A stretch of DNA of 64,000 nucleotides from contig NZ_JH376420.1 of the NCBI RefSeq assembly GCF_000233455.1, positions 2,038,634-2,102,633 of the forward strand, read 5' to 3'. Position 1 is the first letter of the stretch. Each line of letters begins with the position of its first letter. The notes under the pieces were generated by a model. The model did not search any database. It was not told where the DNA came from and saw nothing but the letters and a program-made list of their open reading frames with translations. The DNA comes from [Clostridium] citroniae WAL-17108 (GTDB taxonomy: Bacteria > Bacillota > Clostridia > Lachnospirales > Lachnospiraceae). The translations under genes were made by a program, and so were the position numbers. Of the stretch, positions 40,289 through 52,338 are shown piece after piece.

Positions 40289-41794
40289 TTAGTCTTTTTC
40301 CTGCGGTACCTGTCTCACGCTCCGCTCAAAAATGTGAAGTCCCCTGCTGGCTCCGCTTCCCAGCACCGTGGAATTGCCAAGGCAGGCCTCTCCTGCGTCA
40401 AACCGCTCTATATCCGAGCGCTTTACCAGATAACCGGTGACACGCACCACATCCGAACTGCTGGAGTAAAAGGAGAAATAGCGCATTCCCTCCCCAAAAG
40501 CCCCCTTGATAATGTCCAGTACCGCCATAGGGTTCTTCTTGGCTGTCTCCTCAAAGGGAAACAGCTCCCCAATCCCTGCCGCAAAATGCTTCTGGGTCAG
40601 GGCCGTGAATAAAAGCTGGTCATGGAGAGGCGGCTCCTCCCCCACAGGTATCCTGGTATTGGGGGTGACCCCAGTATCTGTTGCGATCCCCACCTGTCCA
40701 TGCATTTCAAAGCGTCCGTACTTGGGCTTATATGCTTTGATCTGCTCATGCATCCGGTCCAGGATCAAAAGGGCAAATTCCTGCGCTTCCCTGCCATGCC
40801 CATACCGTTCCTCCGGTTTTTCGAGCTTCAGCACCGTGTTCACACACTCCGCCAGGCCTACCATTCCGAACATGCCCACAAACTTATCCCTGTGGATCAA
40901 TCCCTCGGAGCAAAGGAAGGTATTTTCCAGGAATCTTCCCTGCTCCAAAATATATGTATCCCTTTTATCCATCTGCTCACACTGCGCTGCCACTGCGGCC
41001 GGAAGCAGGTGGTCCAGGAAATGTTCCCTGCTCTCAGCCACGTCCCCCAGCTTCTTCATGTTCAGCCGTCCAAGGGTCAGCCCCCCGCCCCCGATGGGCA
41101 GGGCGTTATAGCAGCTCACAATGGCATATTCCCTCCCCCAGTCCGCTGTGTACATGGCATCGTTCACAAAGCTGGGCTTTGCCGTAACCAGGCCGGTTTC
41201 AATGGCCTTGCAGGCAAATTCATCCGTGGTATGCTCATTGTAGATCAGGGACATATTGGGAACCGGGCGCTGCATCTGTGCCGACAGCTCCAGGATGATC
41301 CTGCCAGCCTTTGTGTCATAAGGCCCTATGTCCGCGTGGCAGAAGGAATCGCTGATGGTGCGGTCCACATGGGTCAGGAAGATCCTGATGGCATGGCGCG
41401 CCTCCTCCTCATCCTTTACAAAGGGATCCAGAAGCCTGTCGATATGGCCGATGTACACAGGCCCCGCGATCACCGAGGGCACATGGCGGTAAAGGATCAG
41501 CAGATTTGACACCGCATCCCATATATCCCCGGGCGGATCCAGCATCAGGAACCTGCTTCCCTGCCTCATAAACTTATCATAGTCAGGGAGCACATATCTG
41601 GGACGGTACGGTGCATTTCCCTCTCCCATATCAAACACAATATCCCTGTCCGCAAACCACTGGGCCTCCCTGCTAAGAGGCACGGGATCCGGCGTGTTCT
41701 CAGCCGCTCCGGCCAGGGCGGTCAGCCTCTGAGGGTACGTCAGCTTTGGATCTGCCAAAATTCCTTTGATGATCTCTTCGATTCCCTGTGTCAT
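40289..41794 (-). CDS. yjjI: YjjI-family glycyl radical enzyme
   Basis: A 501 aa anaerobic enzyme predicted to carry a glycyl radical. The C-terminal radical site is VVRVTGYLVKR (Gly about 454) and the probable thiyl Cys is at about 228 in VSCYNALPIGGGG. The length and the sequence fit the YjjI family rather than pyruvate formate-lyase or ribonucleotide reductase. The reaction of YjjI is not established. In E. coli yjjI lies next to the deo nucleoside genes with the activase gene yjjW; here it is again in a nucleoside operon, 11 nt after a LacI-type regulator gene, but no radical-SAM activase is encoded in the window. AGGAGGAG precedes the ATG. Confidence 0.9.
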   Translation of the reverse strand: MTQGIEEIIKGILADPKLTYPQRLTALAGAAENTPDPVPLSREAQWFADRDIVFDMGEGNAPYRPRYVLPDYDKFMRQGSRFLMLDPPGDIWDAVSNLLILYRHVPSVIAGPVYIGHIDRLLDPFVKDEEEARHAIRIFLTHVDRTISDSFCHADIGPYDTKAGRIILELSAQMQRPVPNMSLIYNEHTTDEFACKAIETGLVTAKPSFVNDAMYTADWGREYAIVSCYNALPIGGGGLTLGRLNMKKLGDVAESREHFLDHLLPAAVAAQCEQMDKRDTYILEQGRFLENTFLCSEGLIHRDKFVGMFGMVGLAECVNTVLKLEKPEERYGHGREAQEFALLILDRMHEQIKAYKPKYGRFEMHGQVGIATDTGVTPNTRIPVGEEPPLHDQLLFTALTQKHFAAGIGELFPFEETAKKNPMAVLDIIKGAFGEGMRYFSFYSSSSDVVRVTGYLVKRSDIERFDAGEACLGNSTVLGSGASRGLHIFERSVRQVPQEKD

Positions 41795-44583: not shown

Positions 44584-46011
44584 TCAGGACCAAGGCTCCA
44601 TCAGAACCTGAAGAACGTCCCGCAGCGTATGATCCTCCCCCACATTTCCCGGAAAGATGACATAGGGAATGTGGGGGAACCTGCTTTCCGGACCGGTCCT
44701 CCACACCGGGATTCCGGGGCGGACCTGTCCCTGAACCCAGGCCCTTTTTACTCCCAGGGCTTTGGTGCCGATATCGCTGGATGTGATCCCTCCTTTTGCC
44801 ACAATAAAAGCCGGTGGTTCCTGAACACGCCCCACCAGCTGCTGTACCGCTTCTGAAATCTTAACAGACCGCTCCAGGGCCTGTTCTCCCGTATCCCCTT
44901 TTACGGACAGCAGACGCCGCTTTGTATACACGACAGCGGTGATCCCCTGTCTGATACATGCTTCCTCCCGCCTTACCACGGACGCGATCTCCTCCTCCAT
45001 GGCGGCCGGGTCCAGCACTTGATCCGAATCAAACTCCATCAGGCGGATATTTGGCAGTTCCCTCAGACATTCCAGCTGGGCTGTGGTTTTGCGGGTATGG
45101 GAGCCGACCACCACCAGCCCTCCCCCCATCCTCCCCTTAGGAACCAGTTCCCGGCCGGTGAGAAATCCTCTGTCCTCCACTGCTGCAAACTCCTTTACAA
45201 ATCCCGCGGCGGTGCTGAACAGAAAACGCTTTCCCTTTGCCATTGCGCGGTACAGTGCAATACAGAACACCTTGATCTCCAGGGAGGTCAGTGCGTTTAC
45301 CACCACCTTGTCAAATCCCCCGGCATTCATAAGCATCTGCTCCACGCCGTCTATATCCACGGACCGCAGCTGCTGCGCGGATATGCATATCACATCCTCT
45401 TTCCTATCGGTTCCCCCGGTCTTTTCTTCTATATATTCCCTCAGATCCGAAGAACGGTAGCCAAAGGTCTTATCGTTTGCAAATTCCGTTTCACCCGCAG
45501 GAACCAGCCATTCCCCCTCTTTTACATAGTGGACATTGTCCATGGTAAATCTGCCTCCCTCGGCAAAAAAGGGGCAGATCACTTCCCCGTGTATCTCCTC
45601 TCCCATCTGCTTCCCAAGGGTCTCCCTCAGTGTTTGGGTTTCCAGGGGAAAATGGCCCCGCAAAGTCGAATCTCCCCTGTTTACAACGGCAAACGCAATA
45701 CCCAGCTCCTTTGACACCGCTGCCAGCCTGCGCCCGATCTCACCGTGGGCCCGTATGGTCTGGGGTCTGGAAAAACTTCTTGAATTTGTCAGGATAAAAA
45801 ACATCTTCCCCGGTTCCAGGAATCCCTGCCGGATACTCTCATAACTCCAGTCCGTGTATACCGGCACATCATGGACGGTCTGGATTCCGGTTGGATCGTC
45901 ATCCAGGACCACGATCTTATGACCGTCCTTTTCCGCCTCCTCCTTTAGGAGAAGTTGGATGGCCCGTGGATCCAGGCCATCCTTCCATTGCAGATCACTA
46001 TATTTTAGCAT
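44584..46011 (-). CDS. Four-carbon acid sugar kinase family protein (DUF1537, OtnK/DtnK-like)
   Basis: ATP-dependent kinase of 475 aa. The N-terminal substrate domain contains IVVLDDDPTGIQTVHDVPVYTDW, NSRSF and AVVNRGDSTLRGHFPLE; the C-terminal ATP-binding domain contains VAKGGITSSDIGTKAL and YVIFPGNVGED. Characterised relatives phosphorylate D-erythronate, L- or D-threonate and similar acid sugars. It is the last gene of an operon with an HpcH/HpaI aldolase and a TctCBA transporter, 11 nt after tctA. The true substrate is unknown. GAGGAGG precedes the ATG. Confidence 0.92.
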   Translation of the reverse strand: MLKYSDLQWKDGLDPRAIQLLLKEEAEKDGHKIVVLDDDPTGIQTVHDVPVYTDWSYESIRQGFLEPGKMFFILTNSRSFSRPQTIRAHGEIGRRLAAVSKELGIAFAVVNRGDSTLRGHFPLETQTLRETLGKQMGEEIHGEVICPFFAEGGRFTMDNVHYVKEGEWLVPAGETEFANDKTFGYRSSDLREYIEEKTGGTDRKEDVICISAQQLRSVDIDGVEQMLMNAGGFDKVVVNALTSLEIKVFCIALYRAMAKGKRFLFSTAAGFVKEFAAVEDRGFLTGRELVPKGRMGGGLVVVGSHTRKTTAQLECLRELPNIRLMEFDSDQVLDPAAMEEEIASVVRREEACIRQGITAVVYTKRRLLSVKGDTGEQALERSVKISEAVQQLVGRVQEPPAFIVAKGGITSSDIGTKALGVKRAWVQGQVRPGIPVWRTGPESRFPHIPYVIFPGNVGEDHTLRDVLQVLMEPWS

Positions 46012-46022
46012 CCGGTCCTCCT

Positions 46023-47522
46023 CTATACAGTTGATGTCTCACGCTGCTTTTTCCTGTCCTTTATCTCGCTTCTCACAGACAGGACCACCATGACCGCGGT
46101 AAGGATAAAAAATACCAGAGCTATGGGTGATGTCAGGATGGGAAGGAAACTGCCTTCCGTGCGCATCAGGGACCGCCTTACATTTTCCTCCAAAAGAGGC
46201 GCCAGTATGAATCCCACCACCATGGGAGCCAGCGGATACTCCCATCGCTTGAGCACATACCCCACAAGCCCGAATATCACCATGACCAGTATATCAAACA
46301 CACGGTTGTTTGCAGAGAATGAACCCACAAAGCAGCAGGCGATCACCACGGGCAGCAGATAAGAGCCGGGAATGCTGAGGACCTTTGCAAACAGCGGAAG
46401 CCCCAAAAGCTCAGACACCATCATCACAATGTTTGCTATGATAAATGCCGCAAACAGTGCATATACCAGGTCCGCGCTGGTCTTAAACAACAGGGGCCCT
46501 GGTGTGATGCTGTGTATCTGGAATCCCGCAAGCACCATGGATGTGGCGTTATCCCCCGGGATCCCCAGGGTCAGAAGAACGATCAGCGCGCCTCCGATGG
46601 TGGCATTGTTAGCCGTCTCCGAAGCCACGATCCCGTCCATGACCCCTGTCCCGAACTTTTCCGGGTACTTGGACCGCTTTTTGCAAAAAGCGTAGGCCAG
46701 AAGGTTGGAAGCATTTCCCCCGATTCCGGGAAGGATTCCCACAGACAATCCGATAAAAGCAGCAGGAATGGCATTTCTCAGCTGGTACACAAATTCCTTC
46801 AGGCTCAGTCCAAATCCCTTTACCCTGGCGGATGGCGCGCGCTGAATGGACGATGGCCCCTTGGCGGCGGTTTCAATGATCTGGGACACTGCAAAGGTAC
46901 CGATCAAAAGCGGGACCAGGTTAAACCCTGCCGCCAGGCTGGAGATCCCTCCCGTGTACCTGGTGTAGGAGCTGAGACGGTCAATTCCCACAAAGGAAAA
47001 GGCAATGCCCAGAAGACAGGATAAAAGCCCTTTGTTGATATTTCCCGCGGAAAGGCCCGACACAGTGGTCAGGGCAAAGAGTATGACCGCAAAATACTCA
47101 TAGGGTCCGAATTTTAATGCCACCCCCGCAATCACCGGCCCCAGATAGGTCAGTATAAGGGCGCTGAATATCCCTCCCACAAAGGAGAAAACAATCGCAG
47201 TGCCCAGGGCCTTGCCGGCCTCCCCTCTCTGTGCCATGGGATAGCCGTCAAAACAGGTGGCAATGGATGAGGGCGTGCCCGGTATTCCCAGCAGAATGGC
47301 TGAGATCAAGCCTCCTGAAAGCCCTCCCACATAGATAGATATAAGAAACGCAATACCGTTGACCGGCTCCATGCCAAAGGTGATGGGCAAAAACAGGGCC
47401 AGGGCCGTAAAGGCCGAGAGTCCCGGAATGGCGCCGAAAACGATCCCGGCAACCACTCCCCCGATAATAAGAGACAGAGTAACAGGATGGAACACTGCCA
47501 TAAAACCTTGAATAAGCTGCAT
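46023..47522 (-). CDS. tctA: Tripartite tricarboxylate transporter large permease TctA
   Basis: Main membrane subunit of a binding-protein-dependent secondary transporter, 499 aa with about 12 helices. The family pattern includes GIVFGAIPGLSAFTALALFLP, LGIPGTPSSIATCFDGYPMAQRG and GILPGIGGNASNLLAYAFCKKRS. Such systems take up carboxylates with ion symport. AAGGAGGAGG precedes the ATG and it follows tctB by 11 nt. Confidence 0.95.
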   Translation of the reverse strand: MQLIQGFMAVFHPVTLSLIIGGVVAGIVFGAIPGLSAFTALALFLPITFGMEPVNGIAFLISIYVGGLSGGLISAILLGIPGTPSSIATCFDGYPMAQRGEAGKALGTAIVFSFVGGIFSALILTYLGPVIAGVALKFGPYEYFAVILFALTTVSGLSAGNINKGLLSCLLGIAFSFVGIDRLSSYTRYTGGISSLAAGFNLVPLLIGTFAVSQIIETAAKGPSSIQRAPSARVKGFGLSLKEFVYQLRNAIPAAFIGLSVGILPGIGGNASNLLAYAFCKKRSKYPEKFGTGVMDGIVASETANNATIGGALIVLLTLGIPGDNATSMVLAGFQIHSITPGPLLFKTSADLVYALFAAFIIANIVMMVSELLGLPLFAKVLSIPGSYLLPVVIACCFVGSFSANNRVFDILVMVIFGLVGYVLKRWEYPLAPMVVGFILAPLLEENVRRSLMRTEGSFLPILTSPIALVFFILTAVMVVLSVRSEIKDRKKQRETSTV

Positions 47523-47533
47523 TTTCCTCCTCC

Positions 47534-48010
47534 TTATCCTAATAATCCAGTGGGAAGGAATATACTGAATGCACGGTAGAACAGCTCGTAGATCAATATG
47601 GGCGTGACAACCGAGACTGCTGCGGTGACCAGTATACCTTTCCCGGATCTCAGACGTTTCTCAGGCAGAAGCAGAAGGATCTGCGCCAGGAGGTAGACCG
47701 CTGTCATGATGATAAAGCCTACCGTCTGAACCAATAGTGCGTATGCAAAGAGGATCCCTATGGTGGCAGCGGCCCTTATGTTAAAGCCGCTCCTTTCCCC
47801 TGATCCCTGTTCCTTCCTTTCCTTTTTCAGGCCGGATGCCACCTGAGCCACAGCCAGAATCCCCATACATATGGCAACGGTTCTTGGAAAGAACTGGGGA
47901 CCCATGGCATCGTTTGTGGTGACCACAATGGCGTAAGAGCCTGCATACAGAGCAACTGCAATGAGAAAAAATATCACGCCTGATCCTATTTCCTTTTTGT
48001 TATGTGACAT
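47534..48010 (-). CDS. tctB: Tripartite tricarboxylate transporter small permease TctB
   Basis: A 158 aa membrane protein with four helices (about 10-28, 43-58, 78-100, 120-145). The segment NDAMGPQFFPRTVAICMGILAV is typical of TctB. It is the partner of TctA and follows tctC by 18 nt with GGGGG upstream of the ATG. Confidence 0.9.
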   Translation of the reverse strand: MSHNKKEIGSGVIFFLIAVALYAGSYAIVVTTNDAMGPQFFPRTVAICMGILAVAQVASGLKKERKEQGSGERSGFNIRAAATIGILFAYALLVQTVGFIIMTAVYLLAQILLLLPEKRLRSGKGILVTAAVSVVTPILIYELFYRAFSIFLPTGLLG

Positions 48011-48028
48011 TTTACCCCCTTCTCCACC

Positions 48029-49180
48029 TTACTTGCTGCTGGTGGATAAAAATTCGTCCTTATACGGCACCAGTGTATCCTGATAGAACTGGTCGGCGTA
48101 ATCCTGGGCGTCCTTTTTGGCAATGTATCTGACGGTCAGGTAATTATCCTCCATGGTCTTTACAAATTCAGGATCCTCTGTCACCTGCTTCAAGGCGTCT
48201 GACAGGATATCCACCACCTCATCCGGGGTATCGGGGTGTACCCCCAGCCAGAACCACTTACTGCAATCAATGTCCTTTAATCCGTATTCGGAAGGCAGGG
48301 GCACATCTGCAAGCAGTTCATTCTTTTCACTTCCCAGCAGGCAAAGGGCCTGGAATTCCCCTGTTGCAAAATAATCCTTTGCAAGGGCATAGGCAAGAAC
48401 GGCCGTATCGGTCTGCTGTCCCAGCAGCGCTGTCATCTTGGCCGCATTGTTTCCAATATCCATTGGTTTGAACTGCGCTCCCCACTCCTGATTCATGGCG
48501 ATTCCGTATACCTGGTTTGCCGCGCCGATCTTCATGCCGTACTCAATAGTACCCGGGGCTGCCTGGGTGCGTTCCACCACATCCTTTATACTCTCATAAC
48601 CGGACGCCTTATTGGCTACCAGAACCGTGGTATTGTCAAACAGCGGAATGCCTACTGTCTTAAAACTGTCAATGGTAATTTCTGTTGTGCCCATCATATT
48701 GGGGATATAAGCGTCCAGACCATTGATCACCATGGTATACCCATCCGGCTCCCCGTCCAGGACCTGCTGCATTCCCAGAATAGTGGCCCCTCCTTCCACA
48801 TTGGTGACAACCACATTCACATCCAGGTATTTTGAAAGGTACTGCGCGATCACACGTGTGTTATAATCCGTATCCCCTCCCGCCTTCACAGGGCAGATGA
48901 TCTGAATGGGCTTTTTAGGAAAATCCGTCTGTCCTTTGTCCTCCGCGCCTTCCTTGACCGCACCTGCATCATCCGCCTTCCCGGCTCCGGCTGCCTCCGT
49001 CCCCGCAGCATCCTTGTCCGCCGTATCCTTGCCCGCCGTATCCGCTTTTTGGGCCGAACCTTCATTGGACGCGGCCTTTGTTTCAGCCGCCTTTGTGCCG
49101 GCAGGCTTGCTTCCCGCACACCCTGCCATGGATACTGCCATTACTGCTGCCAACGTAACTGCCATGATTCTTTTTTTCAT
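48029..49180 (-). CDS. tctC: Tripartite tricarboxylate transporter substrate-binding lipoprotein TctC
   Basis: Extracytoplasmic receptor of the transporter, 383 aa. The lipobox is VSMAGC (Cys about 21), followed by an unusually long Lys/Asp/Ala-rich linker (about 25-85). The mature domain begins FPKKPIQIICPVKAGGDTDYNTRVIA, a typical Tct/Bug start, and continues with NVEGGATILGMQQVLD and PDGYTMV. In Gram-positive bacteria the protein must be lipid-anchored, which explains the lipobox. It lies after the aldolase gene. Confidence 0.93.
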   Translation of the reverse strand: MKKRIMAVTLAAVMAVSMAGCAGSKPAGTKAAETKAASNEGSAQKADTAGKDTADKDAAGTEAAGAGKADDAGAVKEGAEDKGQTDFPKKPIQIICPVKAGGDTDYNTRVIAQYLSKYLDVNVVVTNVEGGATILGMQQVLDGEPDGYTMVINGLDAYIPNMMGTTEITIDSFKTVGIPLFDNTTVLVANKASGYESIKDVVERTQAAPGTIEYGMKIGAANQVYGIAMNQEWGAQFKPMDIGNNAAKMTALLGQQTDTAVLAYALAKDYFATGEFQALCLLGSEKNELLADVPLPSEYGLKDIDCSKWFWLGVHPDTPDEVVDILSDALKQVTEDPEFVKTMEDNYLTVRYIAKKDAQDYADQFYQDTLVPYKDEFLSTSSK

Positions 49181-49222
49181 ATTCCCAATCTCCTTCTCCT
49201 TGTGTTTTACCTACGGTCACGG

Positions 49223-50017
49223 TCATCTCTGGGGATACATTTCTTTGAACTGCTCCACCTGATCCAGGGCAACCTTTCCCAGCGTGGTGGTGTCTGACAT
49301 CATGATCACCATACTGTATCCCTTTTCATACAGATTCTTTGCCTCCTCAAAACTCCCTGCCACGGTTGCCAGGAATTTATCGGATCCCAGGACCACTGCC
49401 TCCACTTTGCGGATCGCCTCCTGAACCTCCTCATCCTTGGGATTGCAGAAATGTCCAAAGGAAGTGGCCAGGTCCATGGGACCGATAAAGATCCCATCCA
49501 GTCCATTGGTCTTAACAATTTCCTCAATGTGGTCCACCGCTGTCTTTGTCTCCACCGCTACCAGCACATCCAGCTCCTCATTGGCATAATCCAGATAATC
49601 CCTCTGGTTCATCCCATATCCTCCGGCCCTGGGACTGGGAGCAATGCCCCTGATCCCCTCCAGAGGGTACTTGCAGGCGCTTACCGCCCTGGCTGCTTCC
49701 TCAGCGCTGTTGACATAAGGGACCAGAATCCCGCTGACGCCGGCATCCAGGATCCGCTTAATGGTTACAAAATCATTCCAGGGCGCCCTTACAAAGGGTA
49801 CCACATCATAATGGGATACGGCCTGCAGCTGGCCGATCAGATCCATGATCCCCCCGGGCCCGTGCTCCATGTCCACCATCAGTATGTCAAATCCGGCCTT
49901 AGCCATGATCTCAGCCGTTATGGGGCTGGCTGCCTGCAGCCAGGCGGCTGACAGCTTTTTCTTTTCCGCCAAAAGGCGCTTGGCCCTGTTGCGGAATACC
50001 TCTCCTCTTCTCAGCAT
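49223..50017 (-). CDS. HpcH/HpaI family aldolase
   Basis: Metal-dependent class II aldolase of 264 aa related to 4-hydroxy-2-oxoheptanedioate and 2-dehydro-3-deoxyglucarate aldolases, which release pyruvate from 2-keto-3-deoxy acids. Motifs are ILMVDMEHGPGGIMD (metal Glu/His region), PFVRAPWND, GVSGILVPYVNSAEEA and GIFIGPMDLATSFGH. The ATG at 50017 follows AAGGAGG by 6 nt; the longer frame to 50104 covers the sigma-54 promoter and is not used. It is the first gene of the acid-sugar operon. Confidence 0.92.
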   Translation of the reverse strand: MLRRGEVFRNRAKRLLAEKKKLSAAWLQAASPITAEIMAKAGFDILMVDMEHGPGGIMDLIGQLQAVSHYDVVPFVRAPWNDFVTIKRILDAGVSGILVPYVNSAEEAARAVSACKYPLEGIRGIAPSPRAGGYGMNQRDYLDYANEELDVLVAVETKTAVDHIEEIVKTNGLDGIFIGPMDLATSFGHFCNPKDEEVQEAIRKVEAVVLGSDKFLATVAGSFEEAKNLYEKGYSMVIMMSDTTTLGKVALDQVEQFKEMYPQR

Positions 50018-50092
50018 TGATATCCTCCTTATGATTCCTTCTGCCGGGTACATGCAGCAGCCCTTGTCCCGGCATTTTATACTGATTATAAA

Positions 50093-50108
50093 AGCAAATT
50101 CCATGCCA
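50093..50108 (-). promoter_or_regulatory. Sigma-54 (-24/-12) promoter of the acid-sugar operon
   Basis: The minus strand reads TGGCATG-GAAT-TTGCT. The GG and GC doublets are separated by exactly 10 bp, the hallmark of sigma-54 promoters (TGGCACG-N4-TTGCW). It lies about 75 nt upstream of the aldolase ATG and is divergent from a sigma-54 activator gene. Confidence 0.85.
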
Positions 50109-50152
50109 AGATGCTGATCTCTCCGAAAGCCCGGATTTTTTGTGGATCTTAT

Positions 50153-50176
50153 CTAAAAATACTTAATTATTTTTAG
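50153..50176. promoter_or_regulatory. Candidate upstream activating sequence
   Basis: Perfect inverted repeat CTAAAAATA-N6-TATTTTTAG, centred about 60 bp upstream of the -24 element. This is a plausible binding site for the divergent PrpR-like activator, although the usual enhancer distance is somewhat greater. Confidence 0.45.
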
Positions 50177-50334
50177 CACTAATACCAGCTGTTACCTCCC
50201 CCTCCTTTTGTCCTCATTTCCACTACGTTTTATTTTGATGCACCATTTTGTTTCTTATAAAACATATTGTTCTATTTTTCTCCGGGTTATGGTACCATTA
50301 GGGTATGCCTGACAAGAAAGAAGGAAGATGATCC

Positions 50335-52338
50335 ATGGTAAAGATAGCCCTTGTAGTACCCTGTGAAAATTTTATCGCCCACGCCTCCCAAATCCTCAGC
50401 CAGCACAACCGTTTCCATGAACAGGAGGATTCGGAAACCTATGTCATGGACGAGATCATTATGAATAACTCCAATGCCGGACATACAAAGATCGATGCCG
50501 ACATCATCCTCACCCGGGGGCTTTTGGCCCAGATTCTGGCCAACCTTCCCGGTGACATCCCTGTGGTCCAGATCTCCGTTCCCACCGCGGATATCCTGAG
50601 GACGATCCGCAAATGCACCCGGCTCTACGGTCAGAAGCAGATCGGCATTATTGCCGCAGGCAATATGCTGGCAGGGATCACCGGCCTGTCCGACCTGTGC
50701 GATGTCCCCATTAAAACCTACCTCCTCTCCCCCAACTGGAACAACGAAGCCCTGGCAGACCAGGCGATCCGGGAGGGCTGCCAGGTGATCCTGGGAGGGC
50801 TTAACACCTGCCGATACGCGCAGATGATCCACGTGCCCAACATGCTCATAGAAACCAGCGAGGAGGCATTTTGGGACGCCCTTTCCTCGGCCAAGCGCGC
50901 TTTGCATATATTCCGCAAGGAGCAGGAAAAGTCCATGCGCCTTCAGACCATACTGGATATTTCCCATGACGGGATCATTTTCATAGACCCTTCCAGGCGG
51001 GTCACCACTGCAAACAAAAAAGCCCAGTCCATCTTCGGGCTGGACAAGGACTGCCTGGGAAAACGCATCATTGACATCCCCTTCCCTTTGGAGCTTAAAA
51101 ACCTGCTGTCCGACAACAATGAATACGCCAACAAGATCCTGCAGTACAACCGCACCCTGCTGAGCATCAGCAAAACATTTGTAAAAACCCAGACATTTTT
51201 GTCAGGGTCCATTGTGAACATCCAGCTGGTCAATGAGATCCAGTGGCTGGAAGGTGATATCCGCAAGCAGCTCCATCAAAAGGGCCTTGTGGCAAAGCTC
51301 ACCTTCTCCGATATGATCGGGTCCTCTCCGTCCATGGCCTCTGTTATAAAGACCGCAAAAAAATACAGCCGCACCAACTCCAATATCCTTCTCATCGGAG
51401 AGAGCGGCACCGGAAAGGAGGTGCTGGCCCAGAGCATCCACAACGCCAGCCCCCGCAGCCTCTGCCCCTTTGTGGCGGTCAACTGCGCCGCCATTCCCGA
51501 TACCCTGCTGGAAAGCGAGCTTTTTGGCTATGTTCCCGGGGCATTTACCGGCGCACAAAAAAGCGGCAAGACCGGTCTCTTTGAGCTGGCCCATACCGGC
51601 ACCATTTTCCTGGATGAGATCGGTGAGATTCCTCTCCCCCTTCAGGCCAAGCTTCTAAGGGTACTTCAGGAGAGGGAGATCATGCGGGTGGGCGGCGATT
51701 CCGTGATCCATGTGGATATCCGCATCATTGCCGCCACCAACAAAAATCTGGAAAACCTGGTCAAGGACCACCTGTTCCGTGAGGATCTGTTCTACCGTCT
51801 GGACGTGCTGAGGATCACCATACCGCCCTTAAACCAGCGCCGGGAGGATATCCCCTTGCTGGCAGCTGATTACATGGGAAAAAATTTCCCCGGTATCCGG
51901 ATGGCGCCGGAGGTGGTGCAGTTCCTCTCACAGGCTGACTGGACCGGCAATGTCCGGCATCTGTTTAACATCTGCGAGCGCATGGCTGTCCTGTGCAGCG
52001 ATTATTATGTGGACCTGGAATGCGCCAAACTGGCATTTCCCGAATGCCACTCCGCATCCGGGCCATCCGCGCCGGATCTATCCGCACTATCCGCCGGGTC
52101 CTCCATCACCGGGCCTTCCACCGCCGGGCCTTCCACCGCCGGGCCTTCCACCGCCGGGCCTTCCACCGCCGGGCCTTCCACCGCCGGGACCTCCAGCGCC
52201 GCCCACCGGGCAGAGGAGAGCCGGATCCTTGAAGCCCTGGCCTTCTGCCGTTTCAACAAGGGACAGGCAGCTTCCATGCTGGGAATGAGCCGCTCCACCC
52301 TGTGGAGAAAGATGAAGGAATACCATATAGAAGGATAA
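50335..52338 (+). CDS. PrpR-like sigma-54-dependent transcriptional activator
   Basis: Enhancer-binding protein of 667 aa. The N-terminal PrpR_N ligand domain (about 1-170) includes ADIILTRGLLAQILA. A PAS domain (about 195-300: DISHDGIIFIDPSRRVTTAN) follows. The AAA+ domain (about 318-550) has Walker A GESGTGKEVLAQ, the sigma-54 contact loop GAFTGA and Walker B GTIFLDEIGE. A repeat linker of GPSTA units (about 588-622) leads to a Fis-type helix-turn-helix at the end (NKGQAASMLGMSRSTLWRKM). The AAGGAAG ribosome site is 8 nt before the ATG. It probably activates the divergent acid-sugar operon in response to a pathway metabolite. The linker repeat is unusual for the family. Confidence 0.94.
   Translation: MVKIALVVPCENFIAHASQILSQHNRFHEQEDSETYVMDEIIMNNSNAGHTKIDADIILTRGLLAQILANLPGDIPVVQISVPTADILRTIRKCTRLYGQKQIGIIAAGNMLAGITGLSDLCDVPIKTYLLSPNWNNEALADQAIREGCQVILGGLNTCRYAQMIHVPNMLIETSEEAFWDALSSAKRALHIFRKEQEKSMRLQTILDISHDGIIFIDPSRRVTTANKKAQSIFGLDKDCLGKRIIDIPFPLELKNLLSDNNEYANKILQYNRTLLSISKTFVKTQTFLSGSIVNIQLVNEIQWLEGDIRKQLHQKGLVAKLTFSDMIGSSPSMASVIKTAKKYSRTNSNILLIGESGTGKEVLAQSIHNASPRSLCPFVAVNCAAIPDTLLESELFGYVPGAFTGAQKSGKTGLFELAHTGTIFLDEIGEIPLPLQAKLLRVLQEREIMRVGGDSVIHVDIRIIAATNKNLENLVKDHLFREDLFYRLDVLRITIPPLNQRREDIPLLAADYMGKNFPGIRMAPEVVQFLSQADWTGNVRHLFNICERMAVLCSDYYVDLECAKLAFPECHSASGPSAPDLSALSAGSSITGPSTAGPSTAGPSTAGPSTAGPSTAGTSSAAHRAEESRILEALAFCRFNKGQAASMLGMSRSTLWRKMKEYHIEG
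52096..52200. repeat. Seven tandem 15-bp units inside the activator gene
   Basis: GGGCCTTCCACCGCC occurs five times without mismatch (52111-52185) with one degenerate copy at each end. The unit is 15 bp, so copy-number changes keep the frame and add or remove GPSTA in the interdomain linker. Confidence 0.93.

What the first reader, a model, noticed from the sequence alone, without database searches (positions are those of the whole stretch)
44584..52338. Sigma-54-controlled acid-sugar cassette with a divergent PrpR-like activator
An HpcH/HpaI aldolase, a complete tripartite carboxylate transporter and a DUF1537 kinase form one operon behind an exact GG-N10-GC sigma-54 promoter (50093-50108), opposite a PrpR-type sigma-54 activator. 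DUF1537 kinases act on four-carbon acid sugars, HpcH/HpaI aldolases cleave 2-keto-3-deoxy acids. This gene combination lacks the dehydrogenase or isomerase of the known threonate and erythronate pathways, so the route may be new or may borrow enzymes from elsewhere.
Basis: partly seen in the sequence, partly recalled or inferred. Interest (0 to 1): 0.72.

Follow-up and report, generated by a model that had tools for sequence, protein, structure and literature searches.

The report
Sigma-54-switched acid-sugar operon, unassigned kinase
An unnamed bacterium carries a five-gene operon that appears to import a sugar-derived acid, split it and phosphorylate a piece of it, probably switched on by a specialised activator encoded next door; the parts are familiar, but the kinase belongs to a group without an assigned substrate and may be a new kind of glycerate kinase.

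Summary
HpcH/HpaI aldolase, TctC, TctB, TctA and a DUF1537 kinase form one tight minus-strand operon. A PrpR_N–PAS–AAA+(GAFTGA)–Fis activator lies divergently. The promoter 50093-50108 (TGGCATGGAATTTGCT, 11/12 consensus positions) is the only site that good in 64 kb (0.15 expected), and rpoN is present. The aldolase start is probably 50017, not the 50104 ATG inside the promoter.

The exact gene set is not conserved: 0 of 65 other kinase loci examined carry the Tct transporter. But this kinase clade has an HpcH aldolase within four genes in 5 of 66 loci, by four separate changes on the kinase tree; a β-keto-acid cleavage enzyme within nine genes in 25; and a tartronate-semialdehyde-reductase-like enzyme within two genes in at least 20. 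In known biochemistry all three routes can lead to glycerate, so I read the window as a gar-like transporter–aldolase–kinase operon with its reductase encoded elsewhere (two candidates in this genome). The kinase would be a glycerate kinase unrelated to the three known classes.

Against: ordinary glycerate kinases lie in 3 of 66 regions; one genome with the aldolase cassette has no such reductase; DUF1537 enzymes known to me use larger acids. Substrate unproven. New variant of a known kind.

The parts
44584..46011 (-). DUF1537 kinase (SBD_N + NBD_C), 475 aa, member of a clade with the signature VLDDDPTGxQTVHD; function unassigned
   Evidence: Pfam 151/123 bits; below every NCBIfam kinase cut-off it matches; family residues D38 D39 T41 G42 R78 G119 invariant and D114 S115 R118 nearly so in 12 rows
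46023..47522 (-). TctA, large membrane subunit of a tripartite tricarboxylate transporter, 499 aa
   Evidence: PF01970, 477 bits
47534..48010 (-). TctB, small membrane subunit, 158 aa
   Evidence: PF07331, 77 bits
48029..49180 (-). TctC, solute receptor, 383 aa
   Evidence: PF03401, 118 bits
49223..50017 (-). HpcH/HpaI-type aldolase, 264 aa; start placed at 50017 (AGGAGGAT at 50029-50022), not at the in-frame ATG 50104
   Evidence: PF03328 142 bits; HpaI 217 and GarL models 213-215 bits, all under their cut-offs; H52, R77, E156, D182 invariant in 8 rows; best PDB relatives HpaI 2v5j/4b5s and GarL 1dxe
50093..50108 (-). sigma-54 promoter, TGGCATGGAATTTGCT (-24/-12)
   Evidence: only site with 11 or more of 12 in the window, 0.15 expected
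50153..50176 (.). perfect inverted repeat CTAAAAATA-CTTAAT-TATTTTTAG, candidate upstream activator site
   Evidence: 9-base arms in 1.4% of simulations
50335..52338 (+). PrpR_N-PAS-AAA+(GESGTGK, GAFTGA, FLDEI)-Fis-type HTH sigma-54 activator, 667 aa
   Evidence: one of 14 PrpR_N genes in the genome

Best explanation
The operon is the transporter-aldolase-kinase part (P-L-K) of an acid-sugar pathway built like E. coli garPLRK from other parts. TctCBA imports a sugar-derived carboxylate. A dehydratase encoded elsewhere would turn it into a 2-keto-3-deoxy acid. The GarL/HpaI-like aldolase splits this into pyruvate and a short aldehyde acid, most simply tartronate semialdehyde. A reductase encoded elsewhere (two candidates in the genome) makes glycerate, and the DUF1537 kinase phosphorylates glycerate, or a similarly small hydroxy acid, to feed glycolysis. 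An effector of the pathway bound by the PrpR_N domain lets the divergent activator work from an upstream site, probably the inverted repeat at 50153-50176, on sigma-54 polymerase at 50093-50108. Shown by sequence: the gene set, tight spacing, promoter match, intact activator motifs, rpoN, and the recurrent pairing of this kinase clade with HpcH. Inferred: each substrate, the order of steps, the borrowed reductase and dehydratase, the effector and its site.
For: The kinase clade has an HpcH aldolase two to four genes away in 5 of 66 loci (window, L116, L117, L146, L150); the HpcH label needs four changes on the kinase tree and starred branches force all four, so the pairing arose repeatedly. 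The best HpcH relative in 391 class genomes (63% identical, G571) lies in such a cassette. The largest other contexts are BKACE (within nine genes in 25 of 66, within two in 19; plus one kinase-BKACE fusion, L048) and a reductase (20 of 66: next to the kinase in 19, two genes away in L152). The reductase is tartronate-semialdehyde-reductase-like rather than threonate-dehydrogenase-like: L151 455 bits (cut-off 397) and 347 (340.75), over two of the three models for that enzyme (249 of 451 on the third); L063 386/310 and L147 394/306, just under; threonate dehydrogenase model 164-190, cut-off 350 (three proteins tested). BKACE upstream of glycerate kinase has genetic support in deoxyribonate catabolism (PMC6365646, passages). 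The genome has two over-cut-off reductases, 427 and 407 bits. Over-cut-off reductases occur in 17 of 43 kinase-positive and 5 of 37 kinase-negative genomes tested (Fisher p 0.012). In one genome the kinase of the HpcH cassette is nearly identical to the one beside the reductase (L146/L147), which suggests a shared substrate.
Against: No assay. The DUF1537 enzymes known to me act on acids of four or more carbons (partly recalled; four-carbon acids and 4-hydroxythreonine in PMC10971088 and PMC7954711, passages). Class I glycerate kinases lie in the fetched regions of 3 of 66 kinase loci (L049 480 bits, L159 457 bits, L057 by similarity only), which would make this kinase redundant there; in L159 the kinase is split. 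Class II kinases were not sought. G375, which has the HpcH cassette, shows no reductase anywhere at E 1e-60, nor do 11 of the 43 kinase-positive genomes in all, G375 included. The four other HpcH cassettes carry no such reductase gene. GarR-like reductases can serve other substrates: one Vibrio enzyme 34% identical to GarR reduces DEH to KDG (PMC13390454, passages). FBA-type aldolases near the kinase in L150, L153, L154, L157 and, further off, L082 fit a keto-acid kinase acting before the aldolase. The genome-pair test is confounded by size (mean 4.07 against 3.30 Mb). Whether G000 has a canonical glycerate kinase was not tested.
Confidence: 0.4

Rival explanations
1. The kinase acts before the aldolase: it phosphorylates the terminal CH2OH of a keto acid of four to six carbons (as OtnK does, or as KdgK does on 2-keto-3-deoxy-gluconate), and HpcH (here), an FBA-type aldolase or BKACE (elsewhere) cleaves the phosphorylated acid.
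For: Matches the chemistry of known DUF1537 enzymes (recalled). FBA-type aldolases near the kinase in L150, L153, L154, L157, L082. The kinase is fused to BKACE in L048. Class I glycerate kinases in 3 of 66 regions, as expected if glycerate is handled by another enzyme. A GarR-like enzyme works as DEH reductase before a KDG kinase in Vibrio sp. C42 (PMC13390454, passages).
Against: Most of the reductase-kinase pairs have no aldolase gene between or beside them. The three reductases tested score far better as tartronate-semialdehyde reductase than as threonate dehydrogenase. I know of no HpcH enzyme whose natural substrate is phosphorylated (recalled).
Confidence: 0.34
2. One reading: a threonate or erythronate operon, with the kinase acting on the C4 acid and HpcH on a C4 2-keto-3-deoxy acid, other enzymes encoded elsewhere.
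For: DUF1537 family membership. In 8 of 66 loci (L050, L052, L054, L055, L056, L061, L062, L065) the kinase is followed within two to three genes by a DtnK-like DUF1537 and a PdxA (the one DtnK-like protein tested scores 256 bits, cut-off 450).
Against: Those operons already carry a DtnK-like kinase, so this kinase must do something else there. Own scores to DtnK and OtnK are 57 and 32 bits against cut-offs of 450 and 350. No LtnD, OtnI, OtnC or PdxA domain in the window operon.
Confidence: 0.12
3. The operon is for a branched or methylated plant sugar acid of the rhamnogalacturonan-II kind, as the kinase's BKACE/GH127 context suggests, and the aldolase handles a late fragment.
For: GH127 genes in 10 of 66 kinase loci; the one tested scores 770 bits on NCBIfam's aceric acid hydrolase model (cut-off 950, so not met). 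The window kinase is sister to BKACE-context kinases of the same genus (100/98).
Against: No glycosidase, BKACE or racemase-like gene in the window operon; transporter of a different type; the same-genus BKACE loci (L007, L118-L122) show no GH127 in the stretch read.
Confidence: 0.08

Closest known systems
E. coli garPLRK (glucarate/galactarate: transporter, GarL aldolase, GarR reductase, GarK glycerate kinase)
   Same: transporter + GarL/HpaI-type aldolase + kinase in one operon; likely route to glycolysis through a C3 acid
   Different: TTT in place of GarP, DUF1537 in place of the class I glycerate kinase, reductase not in the operon, sigma-54/PrpR-type control. The gar operon itself is recalled; the roles of reductase and kinase are in PMC2063504 (passages)
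DUF1537 acid-sugar kinases (DtnK, DenK, OtnK, OiaK)
   Same: same two Pfam domains and conserved residues; a profile of 12 family members finds five PDB sequences, 1yzy, 5dmh, 3dqq, 4xfm, 4xfr (that these are DUF1537 kinases is recalled)
   Different: far below the curated equivalog cut-offs; 16-20% identical to four other DUF1537 proteins compared; no PDB hit at E 0.001 with the single sequence; different gene partners
Deoxyribonate oxidative pathway with BKACE and glycerate kinase (PMC6365646, passages)
   Same: BKACE functionally linked to a glycerate kinase
   Different: there the P. simiae kinase is a GarK homologue; the window operon has HpcH instead of BKACE
PrpR-type sigma-54 activators of Clostridiales (PMC6615313 lists PrpR_N among EBP domains, passages)
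   Same: PrpR_N-PAS-AAA-Fis architecture with a -24/-12 promoter opposite
   Different: target operon is acid-sugar catabolism, not propionate; 331 bits on the PrpR equivalog model, under its cut-off 499

Membership tests
DUF1537 kinase family (PF07005 + PF17042) | both domains over gathering score and the conserved DDxTG / DS..RG motifs | tested here: met
   151 and 123 bits; motifs in A1
D-threonate / 3-oxo-tetronate / 3-oxo-isoapionate kinase (NCBIfam equivalogs) | score over the curated cut-off | tested here: not met
   57/450, 32/350, 20/700 bits
Threonate/erythronate (LtnD-OtnI-OtnK-OtnC or DtnK-PdxA2) operon | partner dehydrogenase, isomerase or decarboxylase in the operon | tested here: not met
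   domains of the operon's genes; PdxA and reductase queries find nothing in the window's 52 ORFs
gar-type operon (works like) | GarL-type aldolase with catalytic His, Arg, Glu, Asp | tested here: met
   H52, R77, E156, D182 invariant in 8 rows; that these are the catalytic positions is recalled
gar-type operon (works like) | aldolase over the GarL or HpaI equivalog cut-off | tested here: not met
   213-217 bits against 369-407
gar-type operon (works like) | tartronate semialdehyde reductase available | tested here: met
   two genes over cut-off elsewhere in G000, none in the window
gar-type operon (works like) | aldarate dehydratase available | tested here: inconclusive
   a GD_AH (galactarate/altronate) gene stands beside another HpcH in L161; its substrate is unknown
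Glycerate kinase classes I-III | homology to PF02595, MOFRL or the plant type | tested here: not met
   the only Pfam hits at E 0.001 are the two DUF1537 domains
Glycerate kinase (activity) | phosphorylates glycerate | not testable with these tools
   inferred from gene partners only
Sigma-54 activator (EBP) | Walker A, GAFTGA, Walker B and a Fis-type HTH | tested here: met
   GESGTGK, GAFTGA, FLDEI; HTH_8 48 bits
PrpR (propionate regulator) equivalog | score over the TIGR02329 cut-off | tested here: not met
   331 against 499 bits
Sigma-54 regulated operon | -24/-12 site and rpoN in the genome | tested here: met
Sigma-54 regulated operon | transcription start about 12 nt below the GC | not testable with these tools
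   needs RNA data
Tripartite tricarboxylate transporter | TctC + TctB + TctA together | tested here: met

The most novel reading that the evidence does not exclude
The DDDPTGxQTVH clade of DUF1537 is a fourth, evolutionarily unrelated class of glycerate kinase. It was recruited repeatedly behind three chemically different ways of making glycerate (tartronate semialdehyde reductase, β-keto acid cleavage, HpcH aldolase), and the window is its transporter-aldolase-kinase form under a PrpR_N/sigma-54 switch.
Probability: 0.32. Interest if true: 0.66.

Novelty: new variant of a known kind. Interest (0 to 1): 0.47.

Why it matters
DUF1537 enzymes are commonly named four-carbon acid sugar kinases. 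A clade found in 40 of 299 sampled genomes of the window's family, with recurrent partners but no assigned substrate, is a gap that a single purified enzyme could fill. If it proves to be a glycerate kinase, the two-gene reductase-kinase units and the BKACE and GH127 cassettes get a readable end point. The regulatory part gives a clean test case: in this one genome 14 PrpR_N regulators split into 8 with a GAFTGA-like loop and 6 without, and the near-consensus promoters found near them (4 loci) all lie beside the former.

Tried and rejected
Rejected or led nowhere: (1) ATG 50104 as the HpcH start: it lies inside the promoter. (2) My first label 'LtnD' for the reductase beside the kinase: the NCBIfam scan showed it to be tartronate-semialdehyde-reductase-like (three proteins); the label stays in the tables, and the tree names the group TSR while its row names keep LtnD. 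(3) Searching the genome for the isomerase of the L146 cassette: no match in G000 at E 1e-5 (the tool itself warns that an empty answer without a positive control shows nothing). (4) The genome-contig scan with the kinase alone returned one locus. (5) HpcH search in 40 genomes of G571's family: only G571 itself at E 1e-40. (6) A common activator site for the window and L009: none seen. (7) Literature, in the held library only: 'DUF1537' with 'glycerate kinase' 0 papers; 'four-carbon acid sugar kinase' with 'glycerate' 0 papers; of 11 papers holding two of aceric acid, DUF1537, DUF849, BKACE, beta-keto acid cleavage, one holds DUF1537 with the others, and it is a review (PMC10971088; listing, passages). 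Searches were seen as listings. The founding DUF1537 paper (PMC4961189) is not held and is known here only through other papers' passages. (8) Structure prediction was never run because the machine was busy.

Faults and limits of my own steps: in the first kinase tree the row L048 was cut at the wrong end; the tree was rebuilt without outgroups and with the right part, and only that one is used. The context table was given 68 loci: 14 of the 15 class-level matches outside G000 (the fragment in G421 was not fetched), all 40 family and 11 genus matches outside G000, the window, L007 and L012. L053 and L078 were dropped because my simple ORF caller lost the kinase, leaving 66, and 16 of these end within four genes of the kinase on one side. 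In L061, L065 and L078 the reductase was hidden by a false ORF but is seen, so 20 of 66 is a lower count. L148 and L149 are fragments of kinase genes and L159 a split one; these three were left out of the trees (63 of 66 rows). On re-checking I lowered the main confidence from 0.42 to 0.40 and the novel case from 0.33 to 0.32, because G375 lacks the reductase and GarR-like enzymes are known to have other substrates, and raised the first rival from 0.33 to 0.34.


Full report
1. What is there. The six genes are real. On the minus strand, in order of transcription: HpcH/HpaI aldolase (start 50017), TctC, TctB, TctA and a DUF1537 kinase, with gaps of 42, 18, 11 and 11 bases. A 667-residue PrpR_N-PAS-AAA+-Fis regulator starts at 50335 on the other strand. 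Downstream of the kinase an M23 peptidase gene is convergent; beyond the regulator lie DUF1015 and, named by eye only, serA-like and serC-like genes, which I count as unrelated neighbours.

2. The promoter is more than chance. Scored against TGGCACG-N4-TTGCW with GG and GC required, the site at 50108-50093 has 11 of 12 positions. No other site in the window reaches 11; Markov sequences average 0.15. The same scan over the 14 PrpR_N loci of the genome (about 3.4 kb each; L138 is the window's own) finds 11/12 sites in 4 loci: L133, L134 (two sites), L138 and L142. One site of L134 (also L009:10315-10330) lies directly upstream of another DUF1537 operon. By simple motif patterns seven of the 14 regulators keep a GAFTGA-like loop, and an eighth (L134, GAFTGT) was read by eye from the printed sequence; six do not, five of them also without Walker motifs; one of the eight, L144, failed the Walker A pattern. 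The sites fall on 4 of the 8 and 0 of the 6 (Fisher p 0.085). The window regulator has all three motifs, and rpoN is present once.

3. Is the set conserved? In whole-genome searches the kinase (E up to 1e-40) is in 40 of 299 genomes of the family, 10 of 17 of the genus and 13 of 391 of the class, own genome included each time. I read the neighbourhood, nine genes either way where the contig allowed, of 66 kinase loci (68 given, 2 dropped). TctA or TctC: 1 of 66, the window. HpcH: 5. BKACE: 25. Asp/Glu-racemase-like: 25. Reductase: 20. GH127: 10. The regulator query matched near the kinase in 2 of 66: the window, and L126, whose protein has PAS and AAA+ but no PrpR_N hit.

4. The HpcH cassettes. 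In L146 (G571, another family) the order is TRAP transporter, URO-D-like, creatininase/IolN-like, Ldh_2 dehydrogenase, SDR, fucose-isomerase-like, HpcH, SMP-30 lactonase, kinase, where the contig ends. Its HpcH is 63% identical to that of the window, the best in 391 class genomes; the best in the family sample is 52% (G194), a genome without a kinase of this clade at E 1e-40. Much the same set, with a different HpcH subgroup (31-33% to the window for L117 and L150), stands in L116 and L117 (same genus) and L150 (another family). marks no SMP-30 gene in L116 and no URO-D gene in L116 or L117. These show what a fuller pathway around the pair can look like. The isomerase has no relative in G000 at E 1e-5, so the window operon is probably not just that pathway split in two.

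5. The kinase tree (63 rows). The window kinase is sister to the BKACE-context kinases of its own genus (100/98). The HpcH label needs four changes, and starred branches force all four: window, L116/L117, L146 and L150. L146's kinase is almost the same as the reductase-side kinase of the same genome (L147). A kinase swapped so freely among gene contexts probably has one substrate that those contexts share; this is inference. L150 is a long branch and its place is unsure.

6. Which substrate? The reductase next to the kinase, tested in three loci, scores as tartronate semialdehyde reductase (L151 455 and 347 bits, over two of three models; L063 and L147 386-394 and 306-310, just under), not as threonate dehydrogenase (164-190, cut-off 350). 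Tartronate semialdehyde reductase makes glycerate. BKACE is proposed to lead to glyceryl-CoA and then glycerate kinase in deoxyribonate catabolism, on genetic evidence; glycerate kinase mattered in four bacteria, three of them using BKACE (PMC6365646, passages). GarL-type HpcH makes tartronate semialdehyde (recalled; roles of reductase and kinase in PMC2063504, passages). All three routes can meet at glycerate. That paper describes three glycerate kinase classes unrelated to one another; DUF1537 is none of them. Hence the main reading, and the novel one. G000 holds two over-cut-off reductase genes (427 and 407 bits). One lies next to a PrpR_N gene (L172), but that regulator failed the sigma-54 motif patterns, so the two loci do not share a demonstrable switch.

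7. Results against it. Class I glycerate kinases lie in 3 of 66 kinase regions (L049, L057, L159); class II was not sought. FBA-type aldolases near the kinase in L150, L153, L154, L157 and L082, and the fusion of kinase and BKACE in L048, fit a keto-acid kinase acting before the carbon-carbon cleavage as well or better. G375, with an HpcH cassette, shows no reductase at E 1e-60, and 11 of 43 kinase-positive genomes, G375 included, show none. GarR-like enzymes can have other substrates (PMC13390454, passages). The reductase-genome association (17 of 43 against 5 of 37) may reflect genome size (mean 4.07 against 3.30 Mb). Nothing here shows a substrate.

8. Verdict. Observation confirmed. Interpretation right on regulation, right on local gene content, wrong on conservation of the exact set, and too narrow on substrate. 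The parts are of known families; the combination TTT + HpcH + this kinase clade + PrpR_N/sigma-54 was seen once among the 66 loci; the kinase clade is the interesting unknown.

Noticed in passing
L048:8260-10503 (-) and L012:2-2347 (+): Kinase of this clade fused to BKACE (747 aa) in one genome and to GH127 domains (781 aa open frame, 5' end cut by the contig) in another; direct links between the kinase, β-keto acid cleavage and a GH127 enzyme.
   Followed up: partly
L060, L070, L072, L074, L075, L079, L080, L155 and others: Recurrent cassette of GH127 (the one tested, L060: 770 bits on the aceric acid hydrolase model, cut-off 950), BKACE and this kinase, in most of these loci also an Asp/Glu-racemase-like gene: a candidate catabolic route for a rhamnogalacturonan-II sugar acid.
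   Followed up: partly
L009:8350-12587: Second DUF1537 operon of the same genome (kinase + class II aldolase/adducin-type gene) with its own PrpR_N activator and two 11/12 sigma-54 sites, one on either side of the regulator; repeats of TGTTGCA/TGCAACA between promoter and regulator may be the activator sites.
   Followed up: partly
G000, loci L132-L145: 14 PrpR_N regulators in one genome; 6 lack a GAFTGA-like loop by simple patterns, 5 of these also the Walker motifs, and so may not act through sigma-54.
   Followed up: partly
window 52111-52185 (regulator linker): Five tandem Gly-Pro-Ser-Thr-Ala units (residues 593-617) between the AAA+ domain and the HTH of the activator.
   Followed up: no
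window 40289-41794: YjjI-family glycyl radical enzyme (621 bits, over its cut-off) beside a LacI-type regulator.
   Followed up: no
L159:9275-11913: Kinase gene split into two ORFs, with a class I glycerate kinase (PF02595, 457 bits) divergently beside it: possibly a replacement in progress.
   Followed up: no
L161:6620-9966: Another HpcH of the genome in a row with a galactarate/altronate-type dehydratase and a gene that looks like a permease; a possible source of the dehydratase step.
   Followed up: no
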